Assembly: GCF_036884655.1 (NCBI RefSeq)
Contig: NC_088345.1
Location: forward strand, 28,065,501-28,129,500
Direction: 5' to 3'
DNA: 64,000 nucleotides
From: Musa acuminata AAA Group
Lineage: Eukaryota > Streptophyta > Magnoliopsida > Zingiberales > Musaceae
Shown here: positions 15,791-39,921 of the stretch, one piece after another
Numbering within the stretch: the stretch's first letter is position 1
How the letters are laid out: every line of letters starts with the position of its first letter
The notes under the pieces: generated by a model
Database searches by the model: none
What the model was told of the DNA's origin: nothing
Seen by the model: the letters and a program-made list of their open reading frames with translations, nothing else
Translations under genes and position numbers: made by a program

Positions 15791-16469
15791 ATTTGAAAGT
15801 GATATTTTCATAAAATAAAGATGCAGCATAAATAAATAACATGTAAATTTCATAGAAAAATAAATAAATAAAATATGAACATCTACCTTAAATAAATAAA
15901 GTGACATTATTTTTCTAGTGAGTCACTATTGAATCTCGGATTTTGATGATAAAATCAATTGATGAGTTAATTGATCTAATCCATATTATTGAGTTAAGTA
16001 TGCAGGATTAACTATGATAACCAGAAAACATAAAGCAAGAATACTGGAGTCAAGTTTGATGGATGTTTAAGAGTCCGAAGAATCATCGGAGATGCTGCCG
16101 GAACCAACCGAGAAGAAATCGGGAACATGTCGGAATTTTTGGAAGTTCACTGAAGAGATCGTCGGAGGTTCGTGAAGATCACCGAGAAGGCTCAGCTACT
16201 CGTTGAAGTCATCACAAGATCGGGAGCTTGCAGGGAGTCTGTCGGAAGAAATCCGAGGGCATATCGGAAGTTCGCCGGAAGTTCGTCGGAAAGCTCGCCG
16301 GAACAAGACTCGACGTTCGCGGTTGAAAACTTGCTTGGGATGTTTTTAGTTATGTAGTTCACATGTAATTAGGATTAGGATTAAAAGATAATCCTATATC
16401 CTGGTTAGGGGCCAACTAGGCCCAAAATTAGACTTGGTTTGGACTGAACTTAAAGCCCAACCTATGAAC

Positions 16470-16665
16470 CGAAGGGTCTGGCGGTGGCACCGCCCAGCAC
16501 CCGAGAGCCAAGCAGTGGCACCGTCTGGTTGGGCGGTGGCACCGCCCAGCACCCGAGAGCCAGGCGGTGGCACCGCTTGGCTGGGCGGTGGCATCGCCAG
16601 TACACTATCAGCGTCAAACACTAACAGGAGGTGGCACCGCCACTAACAGGCGATAGCACCGCCAG
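16470..16665 (+). repeat. GGCGGTGGCACCGCC hairpin-motif cluster in the LTR
   Basis: Five or six perfect or near-perfect copies of GGCGGTG-G-CACCGCC (7-bp inverted arms, 1-bp centre) lie within 200 bp upstream of the TATA box, mixed with CAGCACCCGAGAGCCAGG words. The same cluster recurs in every array unit, in the 3' LTR (about 48311-48445), in the copia C LTR and in the pol-env spacer (35510-35660). Confidence 0.85.
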
Positions 16666-16725
16666 CATCGGGAACCAAAGAGAATTCAAATTTTGGAGCC
16701 CAAATTTAAATCCTCTTGAGGCCTA

Positions 16726-16733
16726 TAAATATC
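16726..16733 (+). promoter_or_regulatory. LTR TATA box
   Basis: TATAAATA in the context GAGGCCTATAAATATCTCGC lies downstream of the hairpin cluster and about 500 bp before the primer site. It is repeated at the same offset (unit start + 424) in all nine array units. Confidence 0.7.
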
Positions 16734-17233
16734 TCGCAATTCTCAACTGAGATTACAACTTTTTAAGAAGCAATTGATTGAGAGAAAAGTCTTAGAAAAG
16801 TCTTAGCAAGTCTTGTTTTCAATTTGCTAGAGTGCTCACCTCCTTCTTTCTTGCTAAAAATTTGTAAGAGTGTGAACCGCTTGTAAAAAGTTATAAGAAG
16901 GGTATTTGCCCTTCCCCTTCTAGAGATTTGCTAGTGGAAGGTGGGAGCCTTATCGAAGAGGGCCTCGCAAGTGGATGTAGGTCATTTGACCGAACCACTT
17001 TAAAATCGGCATGATCTCTGGTTTGCATTTCATTATTGCTATTTACATTACTGCAAACATTCTTAAGTGCTTTATTTCCTCATTACCTTTGTTGCATACC
17101 TTTACGAACACGCGTTCAAGTTAAGCTTTTCGAGTTTGATTTTTATTGTATCAAAGATTTGTTGAAACTAAAATTTTAATCCGTTGCACTAATTCACCCC
17201 CCCTCCTCTTAGTGCCGCTCCGATCCTAACAAT

Positions 17234-17245
17234 TGGTATCAGAGC
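17234..17245 (+). other. Primer binding site (initiator Met tRNA)
   Basis: TGGTATCAGAGC lies two bases after the LTR end. The same site recurs at unit start + 932 in the repeats (for example 18897). Confidence 0.95.
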
Positions 17246-17283
17246 TAGGCTCACTCTCATATTTGGTTTAATACCCAAGAGAG

Positions 17284-18012
17284 ATGGCTTACTCCAGCAT
17301 ACATGAGGGTCATTCTATCACACGTCCACCCATGTTTAATAGGTCGGATTATACTTATTGGAAGACTTGTATAAGGATCTTTCTTATTTCCATGGATTTC
17401 GAGCTTTGGACTATTGACGAAAATGGATTTCAAAAATCTTCTCTTCCGATCAGCGAATGGAATGAATCAGAGAAGAAGGTTTTTGCTTTAAACGCAAAGG
17501 CTATGAATGCCTTGTTTTGTGCACTAGACAAAAATGAATTTAATCGTGTTTCAATTTATGATTCGGCTTTTGATATTTGGAGAACTCTTGAGGTCACTCA
17601 TGAAGGCACTAGCCAGGTGAAAGAGTCCAAAATCAACAGCCTTGTGCACTCTTACAAACTCTTCCGAATGAAACCAAGTGAGTCCATCGGAGATATGTAT
17701 ACCCGATTAATGGATGTCATCAATGGATTCAAAGCTTTTGGTAAAGATTTTACTAACTTTGAACTAAGAACTAAAATCTTAAGATCCCGCCCTAAAAGTT
17801 GGGATCCAAAAGTTACGGTCATTCAAGAGGCCAAAGACCTTAAAACATTCCCTCTTGAAGAACTTATTGGATCTCTAATGACCTACGAAATCACATGTCA
17901 AGCTCATGACGAGCTCGAGAACCCTCTTTTCCAAAAAATAGGAAGGATATGGCACTCACATCACAACAAGACTCGACGTTCGCGGTTGAAAACTTGCTTG
18001 GGATGTTTTTAG
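17284..18012 (+). pseudogene. gag copy 1 (array unit 1), frameshifted
   Basis: This is the first gag after the true 5' LTR. The N-terminal Sirevirus-type gag (UBN2-like, YTYWKTCIRIF near residue 24) is open. Two extra T residues after the ENPL codons (about 17926) shift the frame, and the reading then runs through the junction into LTR sequence and stops at 18012. Private changes are Asp45 (Val elsewhere) and Gln111 (Arg elsewhere); Met143/Phe149/Phe152 are shared with units 4 and 5. Because of the array, this copy is cut off from the downstream gag zinc knuckle. Confidence 0.85.
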
Positions 18013-18946
18013 TTATGTAGTTCACATGTAATTAGGATTAGGATTAAAAGATAATCCTATATCCTGGTTAGGGGCCAACTAGGCCCAAAATTAGACTTGG
18101 TTTGGACTGAACTTAAAGCCCAACCTATGAACCGAAGGGTCTGGCGGTGGCACCGACCAGCACCCGAGAGCCAGGCAGTGGCACCGTCTGGTTGGGCGGT
18201 GGCACCGCCCAGCACCCGAGAGCCAGGCGGTGGCACCGCTTGGCTGGGCGGTGGCATCGCCAGTACACTATCAGTGTCAAACACTAACAGGAGGTGGCAC
18301 CGCCACTAACAGGCGATAGCACCGCCAGCATCGGGAACCAAAGAGAATTCAAATTTTGGAGCCCAAATTTAAATCCTCTTGAGGCCTATAAATATCTCGC
18401 AATTCTCAACTGAGATTACAACTTTTTGAGAAGCAATTGATTGAGAGAAAAGTCTTAGAAAAGTCTTAGCAAGTCTTGTTTTCAATTTGCTAGAGTGCTC
18501 ACCTCCTTCTTTCTTGCTAAAAATTTGTAAGAGTGTGAACCGCTTGTAAAAAGTTATAAGAAGGGTATTTGCCCTTCCCCTTCTAGAGATTTGCTAGTGG
18601 AATGTGGGAGCCTTATCGAAGAGGGCCTCGCAAGTGGATGTAGGTCATTTGACCGAACCACTTTAAAATCGGCATGATCTCTGGTTTGCATTTCATTATT
18701 GCTATTTACATTACTGCAAACATTCTTAAGTGCTTTATTTCCTCATTACCTTTGCTGCATACCTTTACGAACACGCGTTCAAGTTAAGCTTTTCGAGTTT
18801 GATTTTTATTGTATCAAAGATTTGTTGAAACTAAAATTTTAATCCGTTGCACTAATTCACCCCCCCTCCTCTTTGTGCCGCTCTGATCCTAACAATTGGT
18901 ATCAGAGCTAGGCTCACTCTCATATTTGGTTTAATACCCAAGAGAG

Positions 18947-19681
18947 ATGGCTTACTCCGGCATACATGAGGGTCATTCTATCACACGTCCACCCATGTTT
19001 AATAGGTCGGATTATACTTATTGGAAGACTTGTATAAGGATCTTTCTTATTTCCATGGATTTCGAGCTTAGGACTATTGTCGAAAATGGATTTCAAAAAT
19101 CTTCTCTTCCGATCAGCGAATGGAATGAATCGGAGAAGAAGGTTTTTGTTTTAAACGCAAAGGCTATGAATGCCTTGTTTTGTGCACTAGACAAAAATGA
19201 ATTTAATCGTGTTTCAATTTATGATTCGGCTTTTGATATTTGGAGAACTCTTGAGGTCACTCATGAAGGCACTAGCCGAGTGAAAGAGTCCAAAATCAAC
19301 AGCCTTGTGCACTCTTACAAACTCTTCCGAATGAAACCAAGTGAGTCCATCGGAGATATGTATACCCGATTAACGGATGTCATCAATGGACTCAAAGCTC
19401 TTGGTAAAGATTTTACTAACTTTGAACTAAGAACTAAAATCTTAAGATCCCCCCCTAAAAGTTGGGATCCAAAAGTTACGGTCATTCAAGAGGCCAAAGA
19501 CCTTAAAACATTCCCTCTTGAAGAACTTATTGGGTCTCTAAAGACCTACGAAATCACATGTCAAGCTCATGACGAGCTCGAGAACCCTCTTCCAAAAAAC
19601 AGGAAGGATATGGCACTCACATCACAACAAGACTCGACGTTCGCGGTTGAAAACTTGCTTGGGATGTTTTTAGTTATGTAG
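18947..19681 (+). pseudogene. gag copy 2 (array unit 2), fused to LTR
   Basis: A 244-codon frame: gag residues 1-226, then about 17 codons read from LTR sequence (tail ending NLLGMFLVM). It lacks the zinc knuckle. Arg42 and Val68 are shared only with unit 3; Pro169 and Lys199 are private. The leader and primer site upstream (18897) are intact. Confidence 0.85.
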
Positions 19682-20607
19682 TTCACATGTAATTAGGATT
19701 AGGATTAAAAGATAATCCTATATCCTGGTTAGGGGCCAACTGGGCCCAAAATTAGACTTGGTTTGGACTGAACTTAAAGCCTAACCTATGAACCGAAGGG
19801 TCTGGCGGTGGCACCGCCCAGCATCCGAGAGCTAGGCAGTGGCACCGTCTGGTTGGGCGGTGGCACCGCCCAGCACCCGAGAGCCAGGCGGTGGCACCGC
19901 TTGGCTGGGCGGTGGCATCGCCAGTACACTATCAGTGTCAAACACTAACAGGAGGTGGCACCGCCACTAACAGGCGATAGCACCGCCAGCATCGGGAACC
20001 AAAGAGAATTCAAATTTTGGAGCCCAAATTTAAATCCTCTTGAGGCCTATAAATATCTCGCAATTCTCAACTGAGATTACAACTTTTTGAGAAGCAATTG
20101 ATTGAGAGAAAAGTCTTAGAAAAGTCTTAGCAAGTCTTGTTTTCAATTTGCTAGAGTGCTCACCTCCTTCTTTCTTGCTAAAAATTTGTAAGAGTGTGAA
20201 CCGCTTGTAAAAAGTTATAAGAAGGGTATTTGCCCTTCCCCTTCTAGAGATTTGCTAGTGGAAGGTGGGAGCCTTATCGAAGAGGGCCTCGCAAGTGGAT
20301 GTAGGTCATTTGACCGAACCACTTTAAAATCGGCATGATCTCTGGTTTGCATTTCATTATTGCTATTTACATTACTGCAAACATTCTTAAGTGCTTTATT
20401 TCCTCATTACCTTTGCTGCATACCTTTACGAACACGCGTTCAAGTTAAGCTTTTCGAGTTTGATTTTTATTGTATCAAAGATTTGTTGAAACTAAAATTT
20501 TAATCCGTTGCACTAATTCACCCCCCCTCCTCTTAGTGCCGCTCTGATCCTAACAATTGGTATCAGAGCTAGGCTCACTCTCATATTTGGTTTAATACCC
20601 AAGAGAG

Positions 20608-21342
20608 ATGGCTTACTCCGGCATACATGAGGGTCATTCTATCACACGTCCACCCATGTTTAATAGGTCGGATTATACTTATTGGAAGACTTGTATAAGG
20701 ATCTTTCTTATTTCCATGGATTTCGAGCTTAGGACTATTGTCGAAAATGGATTTCAAAAATCTTCTCTTCCGATCAGCGAATGGAATGAATCGGAGAAGA
20801 AGGTTTTTGTTTTAAACGCAAAGGCTATGAATGCCTTGTTTTGTGCACTAGACAAAAATGAATTTAATCGTGTTTCAATTTATGATTCGGCTTTTGATAT
20901 TTGGAGAACTCTTGAGGTCACTCATGAAGGCACTAGCCGAGTGAAAGAGTCCAAAATCAACAGCCTTGTGCACTCTTACAAACTCTTCCGAATGAAACCA
21001 AGTGAGTCCATCGGAGATATGTATACCCGATTAACGGATGTCATCAATGGACTCAAAGCTCTTGGTAAAGATTTTACTAACTTTGAACTAAGAACTAAAA
21101 TCATAAGATCCCGCCCTAAAAGTTGGGATCCAAAAGTTACGGTCATTCAAGAGGCCAAAGACCTTAAAACATTCCCTCTTGAAGAACTTATTGGGTCTCT
21201 AATGACCTACGAAATCACATGTCAAGCTCATGACGAGCTCGAGAACCCTCTTCCAAAAAACAGGAAGGATATGGCACTCACATCACTACAAGACTCGACG
21301 TTCGCGGTTGAAAACTTGCTTGGGATGTTTTTAGTTATGTAG
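20608..21342 (+). pseudogene. gag copy 3 (array unit 3), fused to LTR
   Basis: The same 244-codon gag-LTR fusion as unit 2, with Arg42 and Val68 in common and Ile166 private. Its junction has TACAAG instead of AACAAG (Leu in place of Gln), the only base change seen at any junction. Confidence 0.85.
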
Positions 21343-22255
21343 TTCACATGTAATTAGGATTAGGATTAAAAGATAATCCTATATCCTGGTTAGGGGCCAA
21401 CTGGGCCCAAAATTAGACTTGGTTTGGACTGAACTTAAAGCCCAACCTATGAACCGAAGGGTCTGGCGGTGGCACCGCCCAGCACCCGAGAGCTAGGCAG
21501 TGGCACCGTCTGGTTGGGCGGTGGCACCGCCCAGCACCCGAGAGCCAGGCGGTGGCACCGCTTGGCTGGGCGGTGGCATCGCCAGTACACTATCAGTGTC
21601 AAACACTAACAGGAGGTGGCACCGCCACTAACAGGCGATAGCACCGCCAGCATCGGGAACCAAAGAGAATTCAAATTTTGGAGCCCAAATTTAAATCCTC
21701 TTGAGGCCTATAAATATCTCGCAATTCTCAACTGAGATTACAACTTTTTGAGAAGCAATTGATTGAGAGAAAAGTCTTAAAAAAGTCTTAGCAAGTCTTG
21801 TTTTCAATTTGCTAGAGTGCTCACCTCCTTCTTTCTTGCTAAAAATTTGTAAGAGTGTGAACCGCTTGTAAAAAGTTATAAGAAGGGTATTTGCCCTTCC
21901 CCTTCTAGAGATTTGCTAGTGGAAGGTGGGAGCCTTATCGAAGAGGGCCTCGCAAGTGGATGTAGGTCATTTGATCGAACCACTTTAAAATCTGCATGAT
22001 CTCTGGTTTGCATTTCATTATTGCTATTTACATTACTGCAAACATTCTTAAGTGCTTTATTTCCTCATTACCTTTACGAACACGCGTTCAAGTTAAGCTT
22101 TTCGAGTTTGATTTTTATTGTATCAAAGATTTGTTGAAACTAAAATTTTAATCCGTTGCACTAATTCACCCCCCCTCCTCTTAGTGCCGCTCCGATCCTA
22201 ACAATTGGTATCAGAGCTAGGCTCACTCTCATATTTGGTTTAATACCCAAGAGAG

Positions 22256-22990
22256 ATGGCTTACTCCGGCATACATGAGGGTCATTCTATCACACGTCCA
22301 CCCATGTTTAATAGGTCGGATTATACTTATTGGAAGACTTGTATAAGGATCTTTCTTATTTCCATGGATTTCGAGCTTTGGACTATTGTCGAAAATGGAT
22401 TTCAAAAATCTTCTCTTCCGATCAGCGAATGGAATGAATCGGAGAAGAAGGTTTTTGCTTTAAACGCAAAGGCTATGAATGCCTTGTTTTGTGCACTAGA
22501 CAAAATTGAATTTAATCGTGTTTCAATTTATGATTCGGCTTTTGATATTTGGAGAACTCTTGAGGTCACTCATGAAGGCACTAGCCGAGTGAAAGAGTCC
22601 AAAATCAACAGCCTTGTGCACTCTTACAAACTCTTCCGAATGAAACCAAGTGAGTCCATCGGAGATATGTATACCCGATTAATGGATGTCATCAATGGAT
22701 TCAAAGCTTTTGGTAAAGATTTTACTAACTTTGAACTAAGAACTAAAATCTTAAGATCCCGCCCTAAAAGTTGGGATCCAAAAGTTACGGTCATTCAAGA
22801 GGCCAAAGACCTTAAAACATTCCCTGTTGAAGAACTTATTGGATCTCTAATGACCTACGAAATCACATGTCAAGCTCATGACGAGCTCGAGAACCCTCTT
22901 CCAAAAAATAGGAAGGATATGGCACTCACATCACAACAAGACTCGACGTTCGCGGTTGAAAACTTGCTTGGGATGTTTTTAGTTATGTAG
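22256..22990 (+). pseudogene. gag copy 4 (array unit 4), fused to LTR
   Basis: A 244-codon gag-LTR fusion. Ile84 and Val191 are private; Met143/Phe149/Phe152 link it to units 1 and 5. The unit is 13 bp short: one ACCTTT-flanked segment in the leader-side LTR (about 22070) was deleted between short direct repeats, which does not touch gag. Confidence 0.85.
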
Positions 22991-23916
22991 TTCACATGTA
23001 ATTAGGATTAGGATTAAAAGATAATCCTATATCCTGGTTAGGGGCCAACTGGGCCCAAAATTAGACTTGGTTTGGACTGAACTTAAAGCCCAACCTATGA
23101 ACCGAAGGGTCTGGCGGTGGCACCGCCCAGCACTCGAGAGCCAGGCAGTGGCACCGTCTGGTTGGGCGGTGGCACCGCCCAGCACCCGAGAGCCAGGCGG
23201 TGGCACCGCTTGGCTGGGCGGTGGCATCGCCAGTACACTATCAGTGTCAAACACTAACAGGAGGTGGCACCGCCACTAACAGGCGATAGCACCGCCAGCA
23301 TCGGGAACCAAAGAGAATTCAAATTTTGGAGCCCAAATTTAAATCCTCTTGAGGCCTATAAATATCTCGCAATTCTCAACTGAGATTACAACTTTTTGAG
23401 AAGCAATTGATTGAGAGAAAAGTCTTAGAAAAGTCTTAGCAAGTCTTGTTTTCAATTTGCTAGAGTGCTCACCTCCTTCTTTCTTGCTAAAAATTTGTAA
23501 GAGTGTGAACCGCTTGTAAAAAGTTATAAGAAGGGTATTTGCCCTTCCCCTTCTAGAGATTTGCTAGTGGAAGGTGGGAGCCTTATCGAAGAGGGCCTCG
23601 CAAGTGGATGTAGGTCATTTGATCGAACCACTTTAAAATCGGCATGATCTCTGGTTTGCATTTCATTATTGCTATTTACATTACTGCAAACATTCTTAAG
23701 TGCTTTATTTCCTCATTACCTTTGCTGCATACCTTTACGAACACGCGTTCAAGTTAAGCTTTTCGAGTTTGATTTTTATTGTATCAAAGATTTGTTGAAA
23801 CTAAAATTTTAATCCGTTGCACTAATTCACCCCCCCTCCTCTTAGTGCCGCTCCGATCCTAACAATTGGTATCAGAGCTAGGCTCACTCTCATATTTGGT
23901 TTAATACCCAAGAGAG

Positions 23917-24651
23917 ATGGCTTACTCCGGCATACATGAGGGTCATTCTATCACACGTCCACCCATGTTTAATAGGTCGGATTATACTTATTGGAAGACT
24001 TGTATAAGGATCTTTCTTATTTCCATGGATTTCGAGCTTTGGACTATTGTCGAAAATGGATTTCAAAAATCTTCTCTTCCGATCAGCGAATGGAATGAAT
24101 CGGAGAAGAAGGTTTTTGCTTTAAACGCAAAGGCTATGAATGCCTTGTTTTGTGCACTAGACAAAAATGAATTTAATCGTGTTTCAATTTATGATTCGGC
24201 TTTTGATATTTGGAGAACTCTTGAGGTCACTCATGAAGGCACTAGCCGAGTGAAAGAGTCCAAAATCAACAGCCTTGTGCACTCTTACAAACTCTTCCGA
24301 ATGAAACCAAGTGAGTCCATCGGAGATATGTATACCCGATTAATGGATGTCATCAATGGATTCAAAGCTTTTGGTAAAGATTTTACTAACTTTGAACTAA
24401 GAACTAAAATCTTAAGATCCCGCCCTAAAAGTTGGGATCCAAAAGTTACGGTCATTCAAGAGGCCAAAGACCTTAAAACATTCCCTCTTGAAGAACTTAT
24501 TGGATCTCTAATGACCTACGAAATCACATGTCAAGCTCATGACGAGCTCGAGAACCCTCTTCCAAAAAATAGGAAGGATATGGCACTCACATCACAACAA
24601 GACTCGACGTTCGCGGTTGAAAACTTGCTTGGGATGTTTTTAGTTATGTAG
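23917..24651 (+). pseudogene. gag copy 5 (array unit 5), fused to LTR
   Basis: A 244-codon gag-LTR fusion, nearly identical to unit 4 but without its private changes and without the 13-bp deletion. It carries the Met143/Phe149/Phe152 haplotype. Confidence 0.85.
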
Positions 24652-25577
24652 TTCACATGTAATTAGGATTAGGATTAAAAGATAATCCTATATCCTGGTT
24701 AGGGGCCAACTGGGCCCAAAATTAGACTTGGTTTGGACTGAACTTAAAGCCCAACCTATGAACCGAAGGGTCTGGCGGTGGCACCGCCCAGCACCCGAGA
24801 GCCAGGCAGTGGCACCGTCTGGTTGGGCGGTGGCACCGCCCAGCACCCGAGAGCCAGGCGGTGGCACCGCTTGGCTGGGCGGTGGCATCGCCAGTACACT
24901 ATCAGTGTCAAACACTAACAGGAGGTGGCACCGCCACTAACAGGCGATAGCACCGCCAGCATCGGGAACCAAAGAGAATTCAAATTTTGGAGCCCAAATT
25001 TAAATCCTCTTGAGGCCTATAAATATCTCGCAATTCTCAACTGAGATTACAACTTTTTGAGAAGCAATTGATTGAGAGAAAAGTCTTAGAAAAGTCTTAG
25101 CAAGTCTTGTTTTCAATTTGCTAGAGTGCTCACCTCCTTCTTTCTTGCTAAAAATTTGTAAGAGTGTGAACCGCTTGTAAAAAGTTATAAGAAGGGTATT
25201 TGCCCTTCCCCTTCTAGAGATTTGCTAGTGGAAGGTGGGAGCCTTATCGAAGAGGGCCTCGCAAGTGGATGTAGGTCATTTGATCGAACCACTTTAAAAT
25301 CGGCATGATCTCTGGTTTGCATTTCATTATTGCTTTTTACATTACTGCAAACATTCTTAAGTGCTTTATTTCCTCATTACCTTTGCTGCATACCTTTATG
25401 AACACGCGTTCAAGTTAAGCTTTTCGAGTTTGATTTTTATTGTATCAAAGATTTGTTGAAACTAAAATTTTAATCCGTTGCACTAATTCACCCCCCCTCC
25501 TCTTAGTGCCGCTCCGATCCTAACAATTGGTATCAGAGCTAGGCTCACTCTCATATTTGGTTTAATACCCAAGAGAG

Positions 25578-26120
25578 ATGGCTTACTCCGGCATACATGA
25601 GGGTCATTCTATCACACGTCCACCCATGTTTAATAGGTCGGATTATACTTATTGGAAGACTTGTATAAGGATCTTTCTTATTTCCATGGATTTCGAGCTT
25701 TGGACTATTGTCGAAAATGGATTTCAAAAATCTTCTCTTCCGATCAGCGAATGGAATGAATTGGAGAAGAAGGTTTTTGCTTTAAACGCAAAGGCTATGA
25801 ATGACTTGTTTTGTGCACTAGACAAAAATGAATTTAATCGTGTTTCAATTTATGATTCGGCTTTTGATATTTGGAGAACTCTTGAGGTCACTCATGAAGG
25901 CACTAGCCGAGTGAAAGAGTCCAAAATCAACATCCTTGTGCACTCTTACAAACTCTTCCGAATGAAACCAAGTGAGTCCATCGGAGATATGTATACCCGA
26001 TTAACGGATGTCATCAATGGACTCAAAGCTCTTGGTAAAGATTTTACTAACTTTGAACTAAGAACTAAAATCTTAAGATCCCGCCCTAAAAGTTGGGATC
26101 CAAAAGTTACGGTCATTTAA
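25578..26120 (+). pseudogene. gag copy 6 (array unit 6), early stop
   Basis: The frame ends at codon 181, where TAA replaces the CAA (Gln) of units 1-5 and 9. Private changes are Leu62 and Asp76. It shares Ile119 with units 7-9. The remaining gag sequence and junction after the stop are still present and otherwise open. Confidence 0.85.
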
Positions 26121-27238
26121 GAGGCCAAAGACCTTAAAACATTCCCTCTTGAAGAACTTATTGGGTCTCTAATGACCTACGAAATCACATGTCAAGCTCA
26201 TGACGAGCTCGAGAACCCTCTTCCAAAAAACAGGAAGGATATGGCACTCACATCACAACAAGACTCGACGTTCGCGGTTGAAAACTTGCTTGGGATGTTT
26301 TTAGTTATGTAGTTCACATGTAATTAGGATTAGGATTAAAAGATAATCCTATATCCTGGTTAGGGGCCAACTGGGCCCAAAATTAGACTTGGTTTGGACT
26401 GAACTTAAAGCCCAACCTATGAACCGAAGGGTCTGGCGGTGGCACCGCCCAGCACCCGAGAGCCAGGCAGTGGCACCGTCTGGTTGGGCGGTGGCACCGC
26501 CCAGCACCCGAGAGCCAGGCGGTGGCACCGCTTGGCTGGGCGGTGGCATCGCCAGTACACTATCAGTGTCAAACACTAACAGGAGGTGGCACCGCCACTA
26601 ACAGGCGATAGCACCGCCAGCATCGGGAACCAAAGAGAATTCAAATTTTGGAGCCCAAATTTAAATCCTCTTGAGGCCTATAAATATCTCGCAATTCTCA
26701 ACTGAGATTACAACTTTTTGAGAAGCAATTGATTGAGAGAAAAGTCTTAAAAAAGTCTTAGCAAGTCTTGTTTTCAATTTGCTAGAGTGCTCACCTCCTT
26801 CTTTCTTGCTAAAAATTTGTAAGAGTGTGAACCGCTTGTAAAAAGTTATAAGAAGGGTATTTGCCCTTCCCCTTCTAGAGATTTGCTAGTGGAAGGTGGG
26901 AGCCTTATCGAAGAGGGCCTCGCAAGTGGATGTAGGTCATTTGATCGAACCACTTTAAAATCGGCATGATCTCTGGTTTGCATTTCATTATTGCTATTTA
27001 CATTACTGCAAACATTCTTAAGTGCTTTATTTCCTCATTACCTTTGCTGCATACCTTTACGAACACGCGTTCAAGTTAAGCTTTTCGAGTTTGATTTTTA
27101 TTGTATCAAAGATTTGTTGAAACTAAAATTTTAATCCGTTGCACTAATTCACCCCCCCTCCTCTTAGTGCCGCTCCGATCCTAACAATTGGTATCAGAGC
27201 TAGGCTCACTCTCATATTTGGTTTAATACCCAAGAGAG

Positions 27239-27781
27239 ATGGCTTACTCCGGCATACATGAGGGTCATTCTATCACACGTCCACCCATGTTTAATAGGTC
27301 GGATTATACTTATTGGAAGACTTGTATAAGGATCTTTCTTATTTCCATGGATTTCGAGCTTTGGACTATTGTCGAAAATGGATTTCAAAAATCTTCTCTT
27401 CCGATCAGCGAATGGAATGAATCGGAGAAGAAGGTTTTTGCTTTAAACGCAAAGGCTATGAATGCCTTGTTTTGTGCACTAGACAAAAATGAATTTAATC
27501 GTGTTTCAATTTATGATTCGGCTTTTGATATTTGGAGAACTCTTGAGGTCACTCATGAAGGCACTAGCCGAGTGAAAGAGTCCAAAATCAACATCCTTGT
27601 GCACTCTTACAAACTCTTCCGAATGAAACCAAGTGAGTCCATCGGAGATATGTATACCCGATTAACGGATGTCATCAATGGACTCAAAGCTCTTGGTAAA
27701 GATTTTACTAACTTTGAACTAAGAACTAAAATCTTAAGATCCCGCCCTAAAAGTTGGGATCCAAAAGTTACGGTCATTTAA
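27239..27781 (+). pseudogene. gag copy 7 (array unit 7), early stop
   Basis: The same TAA at codon 181 as units 6 and 8. After the stop, codon 196 reads AGG (Arg) in place of GGG. Otherwise it matches unit 8. Confidence 0.85.
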
Positions 27782-28899
27782 GAGGCCAAAGACCTTAAAA
27801 CATTCCCTCTTGAAGAACTTATTAGGTCTCTAATGACCTACGAAATCACATGTCAAGCTCATGACGAGCTCGAGAACCCTCTTCCAAAAAACAGGAAGGA
27901 TATGGCACTCACATCACAACAAGACTCGACGTTCGCGGTTGAAAACTTGCTTGGGATGTTTTTAGTTATGTAGTTCACATGTAATTAGGATTAGGATTAA
28001 AAGATAATCCTATATCCTGGTTAGGGGCCAACTGGGCCCAAAATTAGACTTGGTTTGGACTGAACTTAAAGCCCAACCTATGAACCGAAGGGTCTGGCGG
28101 TGGCACCGCCCAGCACCCGAGAGCCAGGCAGTGGCACCGTCTGGTTGGGCGGTGGCACCGCCCAGCACCCGAGAGCCAGGCGGTGGCACCGCTTGGCTGG
28201 GCGGTGGCATCGCCAGTACACTATCAGTGTCAAACACTAACAGGAGGTGGCACCGCCACTAACAGGCGATAGCACCGCCAGCATCGGGAACCAAAGAGAA
28301 TTCAAATTTTGGAGCCCAAATTTAAATCCTCTTGAGGCCTATAAATATCTCGCAATTCTCAACTGAGATTACAACTTTTTGAGAAGCAATTGATTGAGAG
28401 AAAAGTCTTAAAAAAGTCTTAGCAAGTCTTGTTTTCAATTTGCTAGAGTGCTCACCTCCTTCTTTCTTGCTAAAAATTTGTAAGAGTGTGAACCGCTTGT
28501 AAAAAGTTATAAGAAGGGTATTTGCCCTTCCCCTTCTAGAGATTTGCTAGTGGAAGGTGGGAGCCTTATCGAAGAGGGCCTCGCAAGTGGATGTAGGTCA
28601 TTTGATCGAACCACTTTAAAATCGGCATGATCTCTGGTTTGCATTTCATTATTGCTATTTACATTACTGCAAACATTCTTAAGTGCTTTATTTCCTCATT
28701 ACCTTTGCTGCATACCTTTACGAACACGCGTTCAAGTTAAGCTTTTCGAGTTTGATTTTTATTGTATCAAAGATTTGTTGAAACTAAAATTTTAATCCGT
28801 TGCACTAATTCACCCCCCCTCCTCTTAGTGCCGCTCCGATCCTAACAATTGGTATCAGAGCTAGGCTCACTCTCATATTTGGTTTAATACCCAAGAGAG

Positions 28900-29442
28900 A
28901 TGGCTTACTCCGGCATACATGAGGGTCATTCTATCACACGTCCACCCATGTTTAATAGGTCGGATTATACTTATTGGAAGACTTGTATAAGGATCTTTCT
29001 TATTTCCATGGATTTCGAGCTTTGGACTATTGTCGAAAATGGATTTCAAAAATCTTCTCTTCCGATCAGCGAATGGAATGAATCGGAGAAGAAGGTTTTT
29101 GCTTTAAACGCAAAGGCTATGAATGCCTTGTTTTGTGCACTAGACAAAAATGAATTTAATCGTGTTTCAATTTATGATTCGGCTTTTGATATTTGGAGAA
29201 CTCTTGAGGTCACTCATGAAGGCACTAGCCGAGTGAAAGAGTCCAAAATCAACATCCTTGTGCACTCTTACAAACTCTTCCGAATGAAACCAAGTGAGTC
29301 CATCGGAGATATGTATACCCGATTAACGGATGTCATCAATGGACTCAAAGCTCTTGGTAAAGATTTTACTAACTTTGAACTAAGAACTAAAATCTTAAGA
29401 TCCCGCCCTAAAAGTTGGGATCCAAAAGTTACGGTCATTTAA
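28900..29442 (+). pseudogene. gag copy 8 (array unit 8), early stop
   Basis: The same TAA at codon 181. No private amino-acid change was seen before the stop, so it is closest to the common ancestor of units 6-8. Confidence 0.85.
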
Positions 29443-30560
29443 GAGGCCAAAGACCTTAAAACATTCCCTCTTGAAGAACTTATTGGGTCTCTAATGACCT
29501 ACGAAATCACATGTCAAGCTCATGACGAGCTCGAGAACCCTCTTCCAAAAAACAGGAAGGATATGGCACTCACATCACAACAAGACTCGACGTTCGCGGT
29601 TGAAAACTTGCTTGGGATGTTTTTAGTTATGTAGTTCACATGTAATTAGGATTAGGATTAAAAGATAATCCTATATCCTGGTTAGGGGCCAACTGGGCCC
29701 AAAATTAGACTTGGTTTGGACTGAACTTAAAGCCCAACCTATGAACCGAAGGGTCTGGCGGTGGCACCGCCCAGCACCCGAGAGCCAGGCAGTGGCACCG
29801 TCTGGTTGGGCGGTGGCACCGCCCAGCACCCGAGAGCCAGGCGGTGGCACCGCTTGGCTAGGCGGTGGCATCGCCAGTACACTATCAGTGTCAAACACTA
29901 ACAGGAGGTGGCACCGCCACTAACAGGCGATAGCACCGCCAGCATCGGGAACCAAAGAGAATTCAAATTTTGGAGCCCAAATTTAAATCCTCTTGAGGCC
30001 TATAAATATCTCGCAATTCTCAACTGAGATTACAACTTTTTGAGAAGCAATTGATTGAGAGAAAAGTCTTAAAAAAGTCTTAGCAAGTCTTGTTTTCAAT
30101 TTGCTAGAGTGCTCACCTCCTTCTTTCTTGCTAAAAATTTGTAAGAGTGTGAACCGCTTGTAAAAAGTTATAAGAAGGGTATTTGCCCTTCCCCTTCTAG
30201 AGATTTGCTAGTGGAAGGTGGGAGCCTTATCGAAGAGGGCCTCGCAAGTGGATGTAGGTCATTTGATCGAACCACTTTAAAATCGGCATGATCTCTGGTT
30301 TGCATTTCATTATTGCTATTTACATTACTGCAAACATTCTTAAGTGCTTTATTTCCTCATTACCTTTGCTGCATACCTTTACGAACACGCGTTCAAGTTA
30401 AGCTTTTCGAGTTTGATTTTTATTGTATCAAAGATTTGTTGAAACTAAAATTTTAATCCGTTGCACTAATTCACCCCCCCTCCTCTTAGTGCCGCTCCGA
30501 TCCTAACAATTGGTATCAGAGCTAGGCTCACTCTCATATTTGGTTTAATACCCAAGAGAG

Positions 30561-31676
30561 ATGGCTTACTCCGGCATACATGAGGGTCATTCTATCACAC
30601 GTCCACCCATGTTTAATAGGTCGGATTATACTTATTGGAAGACTTGTATAAGGATCTTTCTTATTTCCATGGATTTCGAGCTTTGGACTATTGTCGAAAA
30701 TGGATTTCAAAAATCTTCTCTTCCGATCAGCGAATGGAATGAATCGGAGAAGAAGGTTTTTGCTTTAAACGCAAAGGCTATGAATGCCTTGTTTTGTGCA
30801 CTAGACAAAAATGAATTTAATCGTGTTTCAATTTATGATTCGGCTTTTGATATTTGGAGAACTCTTGAGGTCACTCATGAAGGCACTAGCCGAGTGAAAG
30901 AGTCCAAAATCAACATCCTTGTGCACTCTTACAAACTCTTCCGAATGAAACCAAGTGAGTCCATCGGAGATATGTATACCCGATTAACGGATGTCATCAA
31001 TGGACTCAAAGCTCTTGGTAAAGATTTTACTAACTTTGAACTAAGAACTAAAATCTTAAGATCCCGCCCTAAAAGTTGGGATCCAAAAGTTACGGTCATT
31101 CAAGAGGCCAAAGACCTTAAAACATTCCCTCTTGAAGAACTTATTGGGTCTCTAATGACCTACGAAATCACATGTCAAGCTCATGACGAGCTCGAGAACC
31201 CTCTTCCAAAAAACAGGAAGGATATGGCACTCACATCACAAGAAGATCACTTGAAAGGAACATCAAGTGATGAGGACAGTGACAATGACATTGCACTTTT
31301 GACTCAAAATTTTAAAAAATATTTAAGAAAGAACAAATTTAAAAATAATACAAAAAATAAATTTGAACACAAGAAGGACCAAGTGATTTGCTATGAGTGT
31401 AAAAAATCGGGACACTACAAGAACGATTGCCCTCAAGCCAAAAAGAGAACAACAAAAAAGAAGTCGCTCAAGGCAACGTGGGATGATTCAAGCGCGTCCG
31501 AAGAAGAGGAGTCTAACACCAAGCAAGGTTCTCATTACGCCCTAATGGCCATCGGAGAAGAGGTAATGGATTTAATTGATGCAGATTTACCATATCATGA
31601 ATTATTAAATGCCTTCCATGAGTTATTTGATGAATGTAAGACAATTAGTAGAAAATATAAATTGTTAAAAAATTAG
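30561..31676 (+). CDS. gag: Sirevirus-like gag, longest copy (array unit 9)
   Basis: 371 codons from ATG to TAG. Gag forms the virus-like particle and binds the element's RNA. Residues 1-225 are the UBN2-type capsid-like part. An acidic stretch near residues 233-242 (DEDSDNDIA) and a basic stretch follow, then a zinc knuckle CYECKKSGHYKNDC (residues 277-290; pattern CX2CX4HX4C). Codon 181 is CAA (Gln), unlike the stop in units 6-8. The TAG at 31674 is probably a mutation, because gag/pol homology continues in the same frame to a second zinc knuckle. The nearest promoter is the LTR fragment within the same array unit. Confidence 0.85.
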   Translation: MAYSGIHEGHSITRPPMFNRSDYTYWKTCIRIFLISMDFELWTIVENGFQKSSLPISEWNESEKKVFALNAKAMNALFCALDKNEFNRVSIYDSAFDIWRTLEVTHEGTSRVKESKINILVHSYKLFRMKPSESIGDMYTRLTDVINGLKALGKDFTNFELRTKILRSRPKSWDPKVTVIQEAKDLKTFPLEELIGSLMTYEITCQAHDELENPLPKNRKDMALTSQEDHLKGTSSDEDSDNDIALLTQNFKKYLRKNKFKNNTKNKFEHKKDQVICYECKKSGHYKNDCPQAKKRTTKKKSLKATWDDSSASEEEESNTKQGSHYALMAIGEEVMDLIDADLPYHELLNAFHELFDECKTISRKYKLLKN

Positions 31677-32638
31677 CATGATAGTCTCACTTGTAATTTT
31701 GATAAACTAAAAACTGAATATCATGATAGTTTAGCTCCATGTATAAAATGCCATGATCTAGAAACTCTCCAAAAGGAGAACTTGCTACAGAAGGACACCT
31801 TGAAGAAATTCGAGGTTGGTAGTAAGTCTTTGAACATGATCCTTACAAATAAGGGTCATGTTCCTAAAAGAAGTAGAATCGGATTTGTGAGAAGTCCTCA
31901 CCAAAATCCAACCACCTTCATTAAAGGCTCTATCTTACATGTTCGGCACCAAAGCAATTGCAACTTTTGTTGCAAATATGGACATAAAACTTATAAATGT
32001 CCATTGAAGAAAATTAGTCTGAACAAACTAATTTGGGTTCCTAAAGGAACCATGATCAATTCTATGCAATATGATGAATAAGTCAAATCAGTTTTTAAGG
32101 CACCCAAAAGAAAATGGGTACCTAAAAATAATCCTTTCTTTTAGAAACATACACAATCACAAGCTAGGAGCAAGAGATGGTATCTAGATAGTGGATGCTC
32201 AAGACATATGACTGGAGATCCATCTCATTTCTCTATGCTCACTAGCAAAGAAGAAGGGTACATCACCTTCGAAGACAACAACAAAGGCAAAATCATTGGT
32301 AAGGGAACCATAGGTAACAAATTAAAATTTTCTATTGATGATGTCTTACTAGTTGATGGATTGAAACATAATCTCTTGAGTGTTAGTCAATTATACGATA
32401 AAGGTTATATCGTTAGATTTGAATCAAATGTGTGTATGATTGAAAAACCAAACCATAACATAACTATGATTGCATTAAAACAAAATAATGTCTACACCAT
32501 TAACCTTGATGAACTAAGTAATGAAATGTGCTTCTCCGCTTTAAATGATGATGCTTGGCTTTGGCATAGGAGACTAGGCCATGCAAGCATGAAACTAATA
32601 TCTAAGATCTCATCTAGAGAATTAGTATGAGGAATTCC
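31677..32638 (+). pseudogene. Sirevirus-like gag end, protease and pre-integrase region
   Basis: It continues the gag frame after the TAG. The 99-codon frame at 31782-32081 has a second zinc knuckle (CNFCCKYGHKTYKC, about 31960-32001). A protease core follows at about 32176-32214 (WYLDSGCSRHMTGD; the catalytic Asp is in DSG), then the 140-codon frame at 32208-32630 with the pre-integrase motif LWHRRLGHASMKLI. Stops fall near 32080, 32143 and 32628. Aspartic proteases of this type cut the polyprotein; this copy could not be made as one chain. Confidence 0.85.
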
Positions 32639-33680
32639 AAATATGAAGTTTATTAAGGACAAAGTATGCGATGCATGTCAACTAGGTAAACAAATAAAAA
32701 ACTAGTTTCAAACCAAAAATTCAAATTAGCACCACTAGACCATTACAATTGATTCATTTGGACTTATTTGGACCAATTGACACGACAAGTCTAGGAGGAA
32801 GCAAATATGCGTTTGTAATTGTGGATGACTATACTAGATACACTTGGACTTATTTCTTAGCACCACTAGACTATTACAATTGATTCATTTGGACTTATTT
32901 GGACCAATTGACACGACAAGTCTAGGAGGAAGCAAATATGCGTTTGTAATTGTGGGTGACTATACTAGATACACTTGGACTTATTTCTTAGCTCACAAAA
33001 GTGATTGTTTCAAGTGTTTCTCTAAATTTTGTAAACTCACTCAAATCGAAAAAGGCTTCATGATTTCATCAATTCGGAGTGTTCACGGTGGTGAATTTCA
33101 AAACCGTGACTTTCAAAATTTTTATGAAGTTAATGGATACAATCACAACTTCTCCACTCCGAGGAATCCTCAACAAAATTGAGTAGTTGAAAGAAAAAAT
33201 AGAAACCTACAAGAAATTGCAAGAACGATGTTAAATGAACATAGTCTACCCAAGTATTTTTGGGCCGAAGCCATGAATACCACTTGCTACATCATGAATA
33301 GGGTTCTAATAAGACCGTCCATATCAAAAACTCCCTATGAATTATGGAATAACAAAAAACCAAATATTTCCTATTTTAAAGTTTTCGGTTGTAAATGCTT
33401 TATTTTGAATGAAAGGGATGCCTTAGGAAAATTTGATGCTAAATCCGATGAAGGCATCTTTCTTGGTTACTCTTCCATTTCTAAGGCTTTTTGGGTTTTT
33501 AACAAAAGAACCTTAGTAATAGAAGAATCTATTCATGTAGTTTTTAATGAAATTTCTGATTTAAAGAAAAATGATTTTGATGATGATCTTGGTTTTGATA
33601 ATTTGAACTTAAATGAACCCCCTCCTCAAAATAGCAACTTGGATGCACCTTCTTCCGAAATGTCCTTACCCAAGGAATGA
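32639..33680 (+). pseudogene. Sirevirus-like integrase, broken by duplication and stops
   Basis: The zinc-binding end (VCDACQLGKQ) is followed by the catalytic core: LIHLDLFGPID (first Asp), a diverged second-Asp region (IRSVHGGEF, where copia integrases usually have a DRGGEF-like motif, so the Asp appears to be His here) and VVERKNR (Glu). A 131-bp direct duplication (32726-32987) shifts the frame in the core, and a TGA replaces the Gly codon before VVERKNR at 33181. The frame 33228-33680 is the C-terminal part. At least two required residues or frames are lost, so it is not functional. Confidence 0.85.
32726..32987 (+). repeat. 131-bp tandem duplication in integrase
   Basis: Copies 32726-32856 and 32857-32987 both start TTAGCACCACTAGAC and end ACTTATTTC. 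They differ at two or three bases. The duplicated part starts and ends at TTAGC, suggesting slippage or microhomology. 131 is not a multiple of three, so the frame is broken. Confidence 0.9.
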
Positions 33681-34382
33681 AAGTATATAGATGCTCATCC
33701 ATAGGAGCTAATTATAGGAGAAACATTAAAAGGGGTTCAAACTCGTTCCTCTTTCAAGAATTTTTGTGCTAACACCGCCTTCCTTTCTCAAATCGAACCT
33801 AAATGCATTGACAAGGCCTTAAAAGATGTTTTTTGGGTTATTGCAATGCAAGAGGAATTAAATCAATTTGAGAGAAATAAGATATGGAAGCTTGTTCCTA
33901 GACCCAGTGACCATTTAGTCATTAGTACAAAATGGGTATTTAGAAACAAGCAAGACGAAAATGGTATCGTGGTTAGAAACAAGGCTAGATTAGTGGCCAA
34001 AGGTTTCAACCAAGAAGAACGTATCGACTACGAAGAAACCTTCGCTCCTATGGCAAGATTAGAAGCCATTAGGATGCTCCTTGCCTATGCTAGTAGTAAT
34101 AATTTTAAATTGTTTCAAATGGATGTCAAAAGTGCCTTCTTGAATGGTTTTATTTCCGAAGAAGTATATGTCGAACAACCTCCCGGATTTGAAAATTCTC
34201 TTCTTCCTAATCATGTATTCAAATTGACTAAGGCTCTCTATGGCTTGAAACAGGCTCCTAGAGCTTGGTATGAAAGGCTTAGTTCCTTTCTTATTTTAAA
34301 TAATTTTACCAAAGGCAAGGTTGATACTACATTGTTTATCAAACATTTAAAAAAAAAATTTTATTGTGCAAATTTATGTTGA
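33681..34382 (+). pseudogene. Sirevirus-like reverse transcriptase, first part
   Basis: The frame 33846-34382 carries typical copia RT blocks: [51 protein letters not shown] and [16 protein letters not shown]. The stretch before it (33681-33845) has several stops. A run of A near 34349-34357 shifts the frame just before the YVDD-type active site, which is read in another frame at about 34376-34390. Confidence 0.88.
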
Positions 34383-35319
34383 CGATATTATTTTTGGCTC
34401 TTCGGATGAATCACTATGTGAATCATTTGCCAAATGTATGAGTCATGAATTTGAAATGAGTTTAATGGGTGAATTAACTTTCTTTTTAGGATTACAAATC
34501 AAACAACTTAGTGATGGTATATTTCTTAACTAATCTAAATATACATTAGAATTGTTAAAACGATTTAACATGGATAATTCAAAAGCAATAAGTACCCCTA
34601 TGAGTACTTCGACTAAGTTAGATATAGATGAAAATAGTAAAAATTTCGATCAAAAAACATATAGGGGAATGATAGTTAGTCTACTCTACCTCACCATGAC
34701 TAGACTGGATATTATGTTTAGTATAGGACTTTGTGCTAGGTTTCAATCTAATCCTAAATTATCTCATCTTAAGAGTGTTAAAAGAATATTTAGGTATTTT
34801 AAAGAAACTCCAAATTTAGGATTATGGTATCCAAAATCTGAAAAATTCGATTTAATAGCTTATGCAGATGCCGATTTTGGCGGATGCAGGATAGATAGAA
34901 AAAGTACATCCGGAACATGCCAATTTTTCGGACATGCACTTGTTTCTTGGACTTCCAAGAAACAAAATTCAGTTGCACTATCTACGGCGGAAGCTGAATA
35001 CATTGCTGCAAGTGCATGCTGTGCACAAGTTGTTTGGATGAAAAATACATTAGAAGATTATGGAATTCACTTCAAAAACATTCCCATAAAATGTGATAAT
35101 ACTAGTGTCATATGTCTTACTAAAAATCCAATTCAGCACTTTAGAACTAAACACATCTACGTTAGGCATCATTTCATACGTGATCATGTCCTTAACAATA
35201 ATGTTGTTTTAGAATTTATTAACACAAAGCATCAATTGGCAGATATTTTTACAAAAGCCTTAAATGAAGACCAATTTGAATTCATTAGAAGGGAACTAGG
35301 CATGTTAAATTATTCCTGA
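34383..35319 (+). pseudogene. Sirevirus-like reverse transcriptase end and RNase H
   Basis: DDIIFGSSDES and FFLGLQIKQLSDG continue the reverse transcriptase, with one TAA near 34531. The 255-codon frame 34552-35319 covers the connection and RNase H: AYADADFGG (first Asp), SWTSKKQNSVALSTAEAEYIA (Glu), IKCDN (Asp), ending KHQLADIFTKAL and ELGMLNYS. This part is open and well preserved, although the upstream breaks would stop it from being made. Confidence 0.88.
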
Positions 35320-38407: not shown

Positions 38408-38420
38408 CTCTCCCCACCTT
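38408..38420 (-). other. Polypurine tract of the nested chromovirus
   Basis: On the minus strand it reads AAGGTGGGGAGAG, directly next to the 3' LTR. It would prime plus-strand DNA synthesis. Confidence 0.85.
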
Positions 38421-38454
38421 AAAGAAAAATTTAGTCCTCTAAATTTATCATACC

Positions 38455-39498
38455 TCATTCGACGAAAAGATGGGGATAAGCTTTCATCATTTCTTCCTCA
38501 AGCTCCCAAGTTGTTTCCTCTCCAGAATGATATTTCCATATCACTTTAACTAGAGGGATAACCCGATTCCTCAAGATCTTTTCTTTTTTATTAACAATCT
38601 GAGTGGGCTCTTCTACATAAGACAAGTCTTTATCAATCACCATCGGCTCATACTTAATGATATGAGAGGGATCATGTATATGCTTTCTGATCATTGAAAC
38701 ATGAAATATATCATGGATATGGCACAATGATGGTGGCAAGGCAATCCTGTAAGCGACAGACCCAACCCTCTCAAGAATCTCAAAAGGTCCAATAAATCTT
38801 GGGCTTAACTTTCCTTTCTTCCTAAATCTTACAATGCCTTTAGAAGGGGAGACCTTCAGGAATACAAAATCCCCAATTTGAAACTCAATATTTCGCCTTC
38901 TATTATCAGCATAACTCTTTTGACGACTCTGAGCAGTCTTTAACCTTTTTCTTATAAGTTGAATTTTCTCAGTAATTTTTTGTACTTTTTCTGGTGCTAA
39001 TAACTTTCTGTCGCCAATTTCTTCCCAACATATAGGCATCCTGCACTTTCGCCCATATAAAGCTTCATAAGGAGCCATCTGAATACTTGAATGATAACTA
39101 TTATTGTAAGTGAACTCAATAAGAGAGATATCTTTATCCCATTCACCTTTCCAATCCATAACATAGGCTCGAAGCAAATCCTCAAGTGTTTGAATGGTTC
39201 TTTCTGATTGACCATCAGTTTGAGGGTGATAAGCAGTGCTAAACTTGACTTTAGTGCCAATAGATTCCTATAACCTTCTCCAAAATCTAGATAGAAATCT
39301 GGAGTCTCTGTCAGAGATTATCTCCTTTGAAACACCATGAAGTCTTACTATTTTATTTATATATAAATCTGCAAGCCTATCAAGAGAATAAATCATATTG
39401 ATCGGTAGAAAATATGCAGATTTTATTAACCTATCAATGATAACCCAAATAGCATCATGCTTTCTAGAAGTTCGGGGTAGTCCTGAAATAAAGTCCAT
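38455..39498 (-). pseudogene. Chromovirus integrase core, C-terminal domain and chromodomain
   Basis: Two frames separated by one stop near 39267: 39498-39268 (MDFISGLPRTSRKHDAIWV, first Asp region; EIISDRDSRFLSRFW, second Asp) and 39260/39177-38455 (Glu region, then YNNSYHSSIQMAPYEALYGR, the GPF-type domain KLSPRFIGPFEILERVGSVA, and a chromodomain ending GEETTWELEEEMMKAYPHLF). The 240-codon end is intact. The stop is TAG where this family usually has Gln. Confidence 0.88.
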
Positions 39499-39510
39499 GG
39501 TAATACATTC

Positions 39511-39921
39511 CTATTTCCATTTAGGAATATCTAAAGGTTGCAACAAACCTCCAGGTCTTTGGTGTTCTGCTTTGATTTGCTGACAAGTCAAATACTTTGA
39601 AACATATATTGCAATCTCCTTCTTCATGCCTTCCCACCAATAATGACTTTGGAGATCTCTATACATCTTAGTGCTACCAGGATGCATGGTGTACTTTGAA
39701 TTATGACCATCCCTCAGGATTTGATCTTTGATATCTGAGTCATTTGGAACACATATTCTATCCTTAAATCTCAATAGGCCATCCTCTGAAACTCGAAAAT
39801 TCACTTTCAATCCCTTTTCTACTTCATTCCTTAAGCAGATCAAGCGTCGATCTTGTAGTTGTCCTCCTTTAATTTGTTGAATGAGATCGGATTGCACTTG
39901 GATGGAGGCCATTAATATCAT
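39511..39921 (-). pseudogene. Chromovirus RNase H-integrase linker and zinc-binding domain
   Basis: A 136-codon frame with the integrase zinc finger of H2C2 type: HNSKYTMHPGSTKMYRDLQS, then WWEGMKKEIAIYVSKYLTCQQIKAEHQ. The second Cys of the pair is present (TC); the first looks substituted. One stop separates it from each neighbouring piece of pol. Confidence 0.82.

What the first reader, a model, noticed from the sequence alone, without database searches (positions are those of the whole stretch)
16302..31239. Nascent satellite: nine tandem copies of LTR, primer site and gag start inside one retrotransposon
Directly visible: nine units, mostly exactly 1661 bp, each joining gag codon 226 to the interior of the LTR, with only AA shared at the breakpoint. 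The whole array lies between one pair of LTRs with a GTCAC target duplication. Tandem repeats derived from retrotransposons are known (for example arrays from maize centromeric CRM elements and LTR-derived satellites in Solanum). Here the array is caught at an early stage, still attached to its parent element and with a unit that spans promoter, primer site and coding sequence. Either unequal crossing-over or re-insertion of 1.66-kb circles would explain it; choosing between them is inference.
Basis: partly seen in the sequence, partly recalled or inferred. Interest (0 to 1): 0.88.

Follow-up and report, generated by a model that had tools for sequence, protein, structure and literature searches.

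The report
Tandem array inside dead plant retrotransposon
Inside one long-dead jumping gene of a plant, probably of the banana family, a 1.66-kb piece carrying its promoter and the start of its first gene stands nine times in a row; sequence differences suggest that it multiplied in place, late in the element's life, a readable early example of a known route from jumping gene to repeat array.

Summary
Nine head-to-tail units (16302-31239; 1663, 1661 x7, 1648 bp) each run from position 376 of a 5' LTR through TATA box, primer site and gag codon 226. The array lies inside one Ty1/copia element of Sirevirus type with TSD GTCAC (15922-49017), which also holds a nested gypsy element (35667-45754).

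Mechanism: the resident 5' LTR differs from the 3' LTR at 59 aligned sites. At 54 the other eight units share the 5' state; at three, scattered, they share the 3' state and unit 1 alone differs. Pol and the 3' LTR survive. So the array is a duplication of the 5' end, not the deletion product proposed for maize CRM1TR. K2P is 0.068 between host LTRs, 0.038 between nested gypsy LTRs, at most 0.0134 between units. So the units' common ancestor postdates both insertions: DNA-level growth or turnover in situ. Shared mutations reject a single-burst concatemer; mosaic, neighbour-biased patterns point to unequal exchange or conversion.

Kind: retrotransposon-derived tandem repeat, closest to maize CRM4TR. 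'Nascent satellite' is not shown: the own-genome search did not complete (ten tries). Copy number needs long reads.

The parts
15922..15926 (.). target-site duplication GTCAC, left copy
15927..17231 (+). 5' LTR, 1305 bp; its last 930 bp are the LTR part of unit 1
16302..17964 (+). unit 1 (resident), 1663 bp; 2-bp insertion near the gag breakpoint
17965..19625 (+). unit 2, 1661 bp
19626..21286 (+). unit 3, 1661 bp
21287..22934 (+). unit 4, 1648 bp (13-bp deletion); junction word with one change
22935..24595 (+). unit 5, 1661 bp
24596..26256 (+). unit 6, 1661 bp; gag stop at codon 181
26257..27917 (+). unit 7, 1661 bp; gag stop at codon 181
27918..29578 (+). unit 8, 1661 bp; gag stop at codon 181
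29579..31239 (+). unit 9, 1661 bp, continuing into the native gag
30561..31676 (+). native gag frame from its ATG (Retrotran_gag_2, zinc knuckle), 371 codons, ends at a stop at 31676
31677..35319 (+). pol remnants in several separate frames (Pol_BBD, gag_pre-integrs, RVT_2)
32726..32992 (+). 131-bp tandem duplication within pol
35667..45754 (-). nested gypsy-type element, LTRs of 2.74 and 2.75 kb, TSD TGAAG; LTR K2P 0.038
45951..47069 (+). extra ORF of the host element in env position, PF20167
47759..49012 (+). 3' LTR, 1254 bp
49013..49017 (.). target-site duplication GTCAC, right copy

Best explanation
A Sirevirus-type copia element inserted once (TSD GTCAC), decayed, and took in a gypsy element. 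Later the stretch from LTR position 376 to gag codon 226 was duplicated in tandem in the chromosome by an illegitimate (non-homologous) join. Once two copies stood head to tail, unequal exchange and/or gene conversion between misaligned copies raised the number to nine and shuffled variants between neighbours. Shown: anatomy, origin from the 5' LTR, relative age of the units' common ancestor, shared and mosaic variants. Inferred: that the first duplication too is late, the kind of first break and join, and the balance of crossing-over against conversion. No function is proposed for the array: its gag copies drift, three carry a stop and one a frameshift.
For: Order of events: host LTRs K2P 0.068 (95% 0.054-0.083), the 375 bp outside the array 0.062 (0.038-0.089), nested gypsy LTRs 0.038 (0.031-0.046); the most distant of the 36 unit pairs 0.0134 (0.008-0.019). 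Origin: unit 1 and the 3' LTR differ at 59 of 877 aligned sites; at 54 of them units 2-9 all carry the state of unit 1, at two (117, 494) the units vary but none carries the 3' base, at three see 'against'. The unit LTR parts stand as far from the 3' LTR (6.5-6.8%) as the unduplicated 375 bp of the 5' LTR do (5.9%). Growth: 14 of 41 variable ungapped sites are shared by two or more units; a single-burst star model with recurrent mutation gave at most 11 in 9 settings of 3,000 runs each. 30 of 91 pairs of those 14 sites fail the four-gamete test, so units are mosaics. Neighbours are more alike than in shuffled orders (neighbour sum p=0.0055; Mantel r=0.34, p=0.036); units 7, 8 and 9 differ by 1-3 bases.
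Against: Concerted evolution can make an old array look young: the measured age is that of the units' common ancestor, not of the first duplication. At three sites (unit positions 311, 464, 791) units 2-9 (unit 4 is deleted at 791) carry the 3'-LTR base and unit 1 does not. Each lies between close sites of 5' type (306/322, 445/487, 765/798), so private changes in unit 1 are the simplest reading. Raw reads were not available, so unit number and order rest on the assembly. The adjacency signal is moderate (Mantel p 0.036). LTRs of two different elements are compared as clocks, and rates may differ. The interval of the 375-bp stretch overlaps that of the gypsy LTRs. In the LTR part only about one transversion separates units on average, and the ratio of ages there (864 gap-free columns, the 52-bp subrepeat left out) is 0.09 with a wide interval, 0.035-0.17. 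The block at unit positions 1410-1638 shared by units 1, 4 and 5 has mixed polarity against the one outgroup, so conversion from another element is possible for it.
Confidence: 0.75

Rival explanations
1. The array was made during reverse transcription (template switching or a multimeric template), came in with the insertion, and was later homogenised.
For: Tandem LTR elements within one TSD pair are known in rice; the authors link one locus to a single insertion, though their discussion leaves insertion and recombination both open (PMC11899658; abstract, discussion and one results section read). Homogenisation could erase the age difference.
Against: Units differ by at most 1.3% while the LTRs of the same insertion differ by 6.5%, so nearly all variation in eight extra copies would have to be erased while the flanks were not. 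A carried-in array would also have to be read through eight internal LTRs (inference).
Confidence: 0.12
2. A 1.66-kb circle formed by joining gag codon 226 to the LTR, and circles re-integrated by homology at the parent element, one by one or as a rolling-circle concatemer.
For: The resulting junction is identical. Circles of LTR elements are known (PMC9324142, listing and start of abstract only).
Against: A one-step concatemer predicts a star of private mutations and is rejected as the only process. Stepwise circle return needs more events than exchange in place and is not separable by sequence.
Confidence: 0.15
3. Deletion model proposed for CRM1TR and CRM4TR: UTR joined to a downstream LTR by deletion within one element or between nested elements, then growth by conversion.
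For: Proposed for a very similar unit in maize (PMC3648361). Three scattered sites where units 2-9 carry the 3'-LTR base.
Against: Here pol remnants, the extra ORF and the 3' LTR are still present, and units 2-9 follow the 5' LTR at 54 of 59 sites. A version starting from a tandem of two full elements (my extension) would need its crossover inside the first 375 bp of the LTR, or later homogenisation.
Confidence: 0.05
4. Assembly artefact: fewer or more units than shown, or false repetition.
For: 14.9 kb of about 99% identical units is hard to assemble; units 7 and 8 differ at one base. Raw reads could not be seen.
Against: Units carry 41 ungapped variable sites with private and shared changes and only two indels. 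Artefactual copies would be expected to be identical.
Confidence: 0.1

Closest known systems
CRM4TR (and CRM1TR), tandem repeats from maize centromeric retrotransposons (PMC3648361; parts 1 and 3 of 6 and passages read)
   Same: Unit starts inside the LTR. CRM4TR starts in U3 about 395 nt upstream of the TATA box (here 421) and covers about 1370 nt of LTR and UTR. Local homogenisation and conversion.
   Different: Parent is Ty3/gypsy CRM; its unit ends in the UTR, not in gag; many copies at pericentromeric loci; in the parts read no intact parent around the arrays is described; a deletion origin was proposed. Here the parent, its TSD, pol remnants and 3' LTR surround the array.
Potato centromeric repeats derived from LTR elements, some LTR-gag-LTR (as reported in the introduction of PMC12596083)
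   Same: LTR plus truncated internal region with gag forms the repeat.
   Different: Centromeric repeats; the original papers were not read here.
Tandem LTR-RTs in rice and other plants (PMC11899658)
   Same: Array within one TSD pair.
   Different: Those alternate LTRs and internal regions; here the repeat joins gag to the LTR interior by a non-homologous junction.
Tandem subrepeats in Ogre 3'UTRs that expand to satellites in Lathyrus (PMC7004042, passages)
   Same: Satellite-like repeats starting inside an LTR element.
   Different: Arrays lie downstream of gag-pol in many dispersed elements; here a 1.66-kb unit at the 5' end of one element as far as seen.

Membership tests
Retrotransposon-derived tandem repeat (CRM4TR-like) | Head-to-tail copies of a contiguous LTR-plus-downstream segment of one element | tested here: met
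Retrotransposon-derived tandem repeat (CRM4TR-like) | Local homogenisation or exchange between units | tested here: met
   14 of 41 variable sites shared; 30 of 91 pairs of those sites incompatible
Satellite DNA | Long arrays free of the parent element at this locus | tested here: not met
   In the window: nine units inside the parent
Satellite DNA | Arrays of the same unit at other loci | not testable with these tools
   The genome search unanswered
Tandem LTR-RT (shared-LTR) structure | Complete internal regions alternate with complete LTRs | tested here: not met
   Units hold a partial LTR and 226 gag codons
Sirevirus (Ty1/copia) | Copia domain set | tested here: met
   PF14223, PF22936, PF13976, PF07727 in order along the + strand (the integrase core was not among the pieces sent)
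Sirevirus (Ty1/copia) | Palindromic repeated motif with CGG-CCG core, clustered upstream of the TATA box in the LTR and before the ENV-position ORF | tested here: met
   GGCGGTGGCACCGCC with at most 2 mismatches, + strand: 70 hits in the window, of which 6 in the 5' LTR, 7 in each of units 2-9, 4 in the 3' LTR, 3 at 35515-35603, 1 at 12687; 0 in three single-base shuffles; definition from PMC2829016 (passages)
Sirevirus (Ty1/copia) | Several polypurine-tract copies clustered upstream of the 3' LTR | tested here: inconclusive
   Besides the terminal tract, one near-match (purine run at 47328) in 45760-47758; the nested element splits the linker
Sirevirus (Ty1/copia) | ENV-like ORF between pol and 3' LTR (present in many, not all) | tested here: inconclusive
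   372-codon ORF in the right place; matches PF20167 (plant transposon protein), not an envelope model
Sirevirus (Ty1/copia) | Placement in the Sirevirus clade of an RT tree | not tested
   no reference set was used

The most novel reading that the evidence does not exclude
The stretch from LTR promoter to gag start is a recurrent cradle of plant satellites (CRM4TR, potato repeats, this array), and Sirevirus LTRs, here with seven G+C-rich palindromes and 52-bp subrepeats per copy, break or stall often enough to seed such arrays in place; related plants then hold further arrays with this or similar junctions at other Sirevirus copies.
Probability: 0.15. Interest if true: 0.65.

Novelty: new member of a known kind. 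Interest (0 to 1): 0.42.

Why it matters
Arrays derived from retrotransposons are often met away from an intact parent, so origin models are hard to test. Here parent, 3' LTR and a nested insertion survive and act as internal clocks and allele markers. The case speaks against the simple deletion model for itself and places the units' common ancestor after the insertion and after the nested element. Long reads of relatives would turn it into a direct test of how the first duplication and its growth happen.

Tried and rejected
Carried by retrotransposition: disfavoured on relative ages, not excluded if homogenisation was strong. Simple deletion to the 3' LTR: rejected on 54 of 59 sites and on the survival of pol remnants and the 3' LTR. 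Single-burst rolling-circle concatemer with no later exchange: rejected. A coding role for the truncated gag: not supported; unit 1 is frameshifted and reads 242 aa, units 2-5 read 244 aa into the LTR, units 6-8 stop at codon 181, unit 9 runs on in the native gag to 371 codons.

Does the junction occur elsewhere: 0 matches for a 28-base junction word in viral contigs. No relatives of the 226-codon gag piece in viral contigs (3 stretches matched a pattern, none confirmed) or in genome contigs (25 matched, none confirmed). These collections are viral and prokaryotic, so this says little. Gag homologues: 281 proteins, 120 listed; none of those 120 holds the junction peptides looked for; the other 161 were not seen.

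A 226-aa hit ending exactly at the breakpoint codon on a 1664-bp contig (P0002) looked like a unit-length contig. Ends of hits are not piled up there: 2 of 120 end at 226 (P0002 and P0006, the latter on a Musa textilis chromosome), while other positions reach 3 to 7. The contig cannot be fetched, so it stays a lead.

Literature: ten searches were sent and nine answered (one search was an input error). Among the titles listed there and the passages I read, I saw none on such an array in a Sirevirus. Most subscription journals are not held.

Confidence in the best explanation was lowered from 0.78 to 0.75 and the carried-in rival raised from 0.10 to 0.12, because three sites go against the plain count and because the age is that of the common ancestor.
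Full report
Observation. The window holds nine head-to-tail units between 16302 and 31239: one of 1663 bp, seven of 1661 and one of 1648. Unit 1 is the resident 5' LTR from position 376 on, plus leader and gag to codon 226; eight more copies follow, and the last runs on into the native gag. The junction word is exact at 7 of 8 junctions. All nine units have the TATA word, the primer site TGGTATCAGAGC and the gag start. One TSD pair, GTCAC, flanks the whole.

What the host is. Copia domains in order (PF14223 and zinc knuckle, PF22936, PF13976, PF07727), LTRs of 1305 and 1254 bp, and an extra 372-codon ORF with PF20167 between pol and the 3' LTR. A palindromic word GGCGGTGGCACCGCC is clustered upstream of the TATA box (6 copies in the 5' LTR, 7 in each of units 2-9, 4 in the 3' LTR) and again before the extra ORF (3 copies). 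That matches the repeated motifs described for Sireviruses (PMC2829016, passages read). Another Sirevirus trait, several polypurine tracts before the 3' LTR, is inconclusive: one near-match besides the terminal tract. I call it Sirevirus-type; an RT tree was not made. The element is dead: its pol lies in several separate frames, and a gypsy-type element with its own TSD TGAAG sits in its linker.

Which plant. The plant is probably of the banana family; this is inference. In Musa the SIRE/Maximus family is the most represented LTR family in most assemblies studied and abundant around centromeres (PMC11754795, passages). Musaceae repeat surveys that I searched in passages name other tandem repeats (CL18, CL33, TR01, Egcen) and in those passages no such array (PMC11754795, PMC9055855, PMC2956553).

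When. K2P is 0.068 between host LTRs (0.062 for the 375 bp outside the array), 0.038 between the nested gypsy LTRs and at most 0.0134 among the 36 unit pairs. The 95% intervals of the whole host LTRs, the gypsy LTRs and the units do not overlap; that of the 375-bp stretch (0.038-0.089) overlaps the gypsy one. On 864 gap-free LTR columns the ratio of unit divergence (unit 1 against the rest) to LTR divergence is 0.09 (0.035-0.17). So the common ancestor of the units postdates both insertions, if the two elements' LTRs change at similar rates. Because units exchange sequence, this is a lower limit for the age of the first duplication. No rates in years are used.

From what. Unit 1 and the 3' LTR differ at 59 of 877 aligned sites. 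At 54 of them units 2-9 all carry the state of unit 1 (a gap in unit 4 set aside); at positions 117 and 494 the units vary but none has the 3' base; at 311, 464 and 791 units 2-9 carry the 3' base. The last three are isolated between sites of 5' type and read best as changes private to unit 1. The array is thus made of the resident 5' end. A deletion joining gag to the downstream LTR, as proposed for maize (PMC3648361, parts 1 and 3 of 6 and passages read), would leave no pol and would bring in 3'-LTR alleles. Only AA is shared at the breakpoint, which does not identify a repair pathway.

How it grew. 41 ungapped sites vary: 27 private, 14 shared. Units 4-9 share one change, units 2-3 three, units 1, 4 and 5 a block of five sites, and units 6-8 a gag stop. 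At one shared site (1338) the outgroup has the base of units 6-9, so there the change lies in units 1-5. A star burst gave at most 11 shared sites in 27,000 simulated sets. 30 of 91 pairs of the 14 sites fail the four-gamete test. Neighbouring units are more alike than in shuffled orders (p=0.0055; Mantel p=0.036). This is the mark of stepwise, local exchange. Crossing-over and conversion are not separable here, and homologous return of single circles is not excluded.

Comparison. CRM4TR of maize starts in U3 and spans TATA box, LTR end and UTR, so the kind is known. Reviews list LTR and gag parts among satellite sources (PMC12628747, PMC9659126, passages), and LTR-gag-LTR repeats are reported for potato (introduction of PMC12596083). 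Long arrays of whole Cassandra elements are a further relative (PMC7215508, passages). Different here: copia Sirevirus-type parent, parent still around the array, and internal clocks. 'Satellite' is not met on present evidence: one locus, nine units, and the search of the own genome did not complete in ten tries.

Limits. Copy number and order rest on the assembly. The outgroup for gag is one diverged copy (11319-12960, minus strand). The contig behind P0002 (1664 bp, gag ending at codon 226) could not be read.

Noticed in passing
window 1154-2811 against 36064-37059: A relative of the nested gypsy LTR seems to carry a 30-bp minisatellite (1470-2225, about 25 copies) where the nested copy has only a 20-bp repeat twice: a second tandem expansion inside an LTR in the same window.
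   Followed up: partly
window 11319-12960, minus strand: Diverged relative of the host element (75-87% identity) in inverted orientation 3-5 kb upstream; used as outgroup.
   Followed up: partly
window 32726-32992: 131-bp tandem duplication in pol at 98.5% identity, another recent duplication in the same element.
   Followed up: no
window 16480-16598 and 48312-48377: 52-bp subrepeat of the LTR is present 2.3 times in the 5' LTR and in each unit and is shorter in the 3' LTR.
   Followed up: partly
window 56495-62088, minus strand: Another copia element with 0.5-kb LTRs (K2P 0.022) and open frames of 980 and 357 codons.
   Followed up: partly
window 52628-53428, minus strand: Frame with a WRKY DNA-binding domain about 3.6 kb from the host element's 3' LTR.
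   Followed up: no
P0002: 226-aa gag relative ending exactly at the breakpoint codon, on an ENA contig of 1664 bp, close to the 1661-bp unit; could be a unit-length contig of a similar array or chance.
   Followed up: partly
window 3889-5665: Long overlapping open frames in a GAA/GAG-rich low-complexity stretch with a 107-bp tandem repeat.
   Followed up: no
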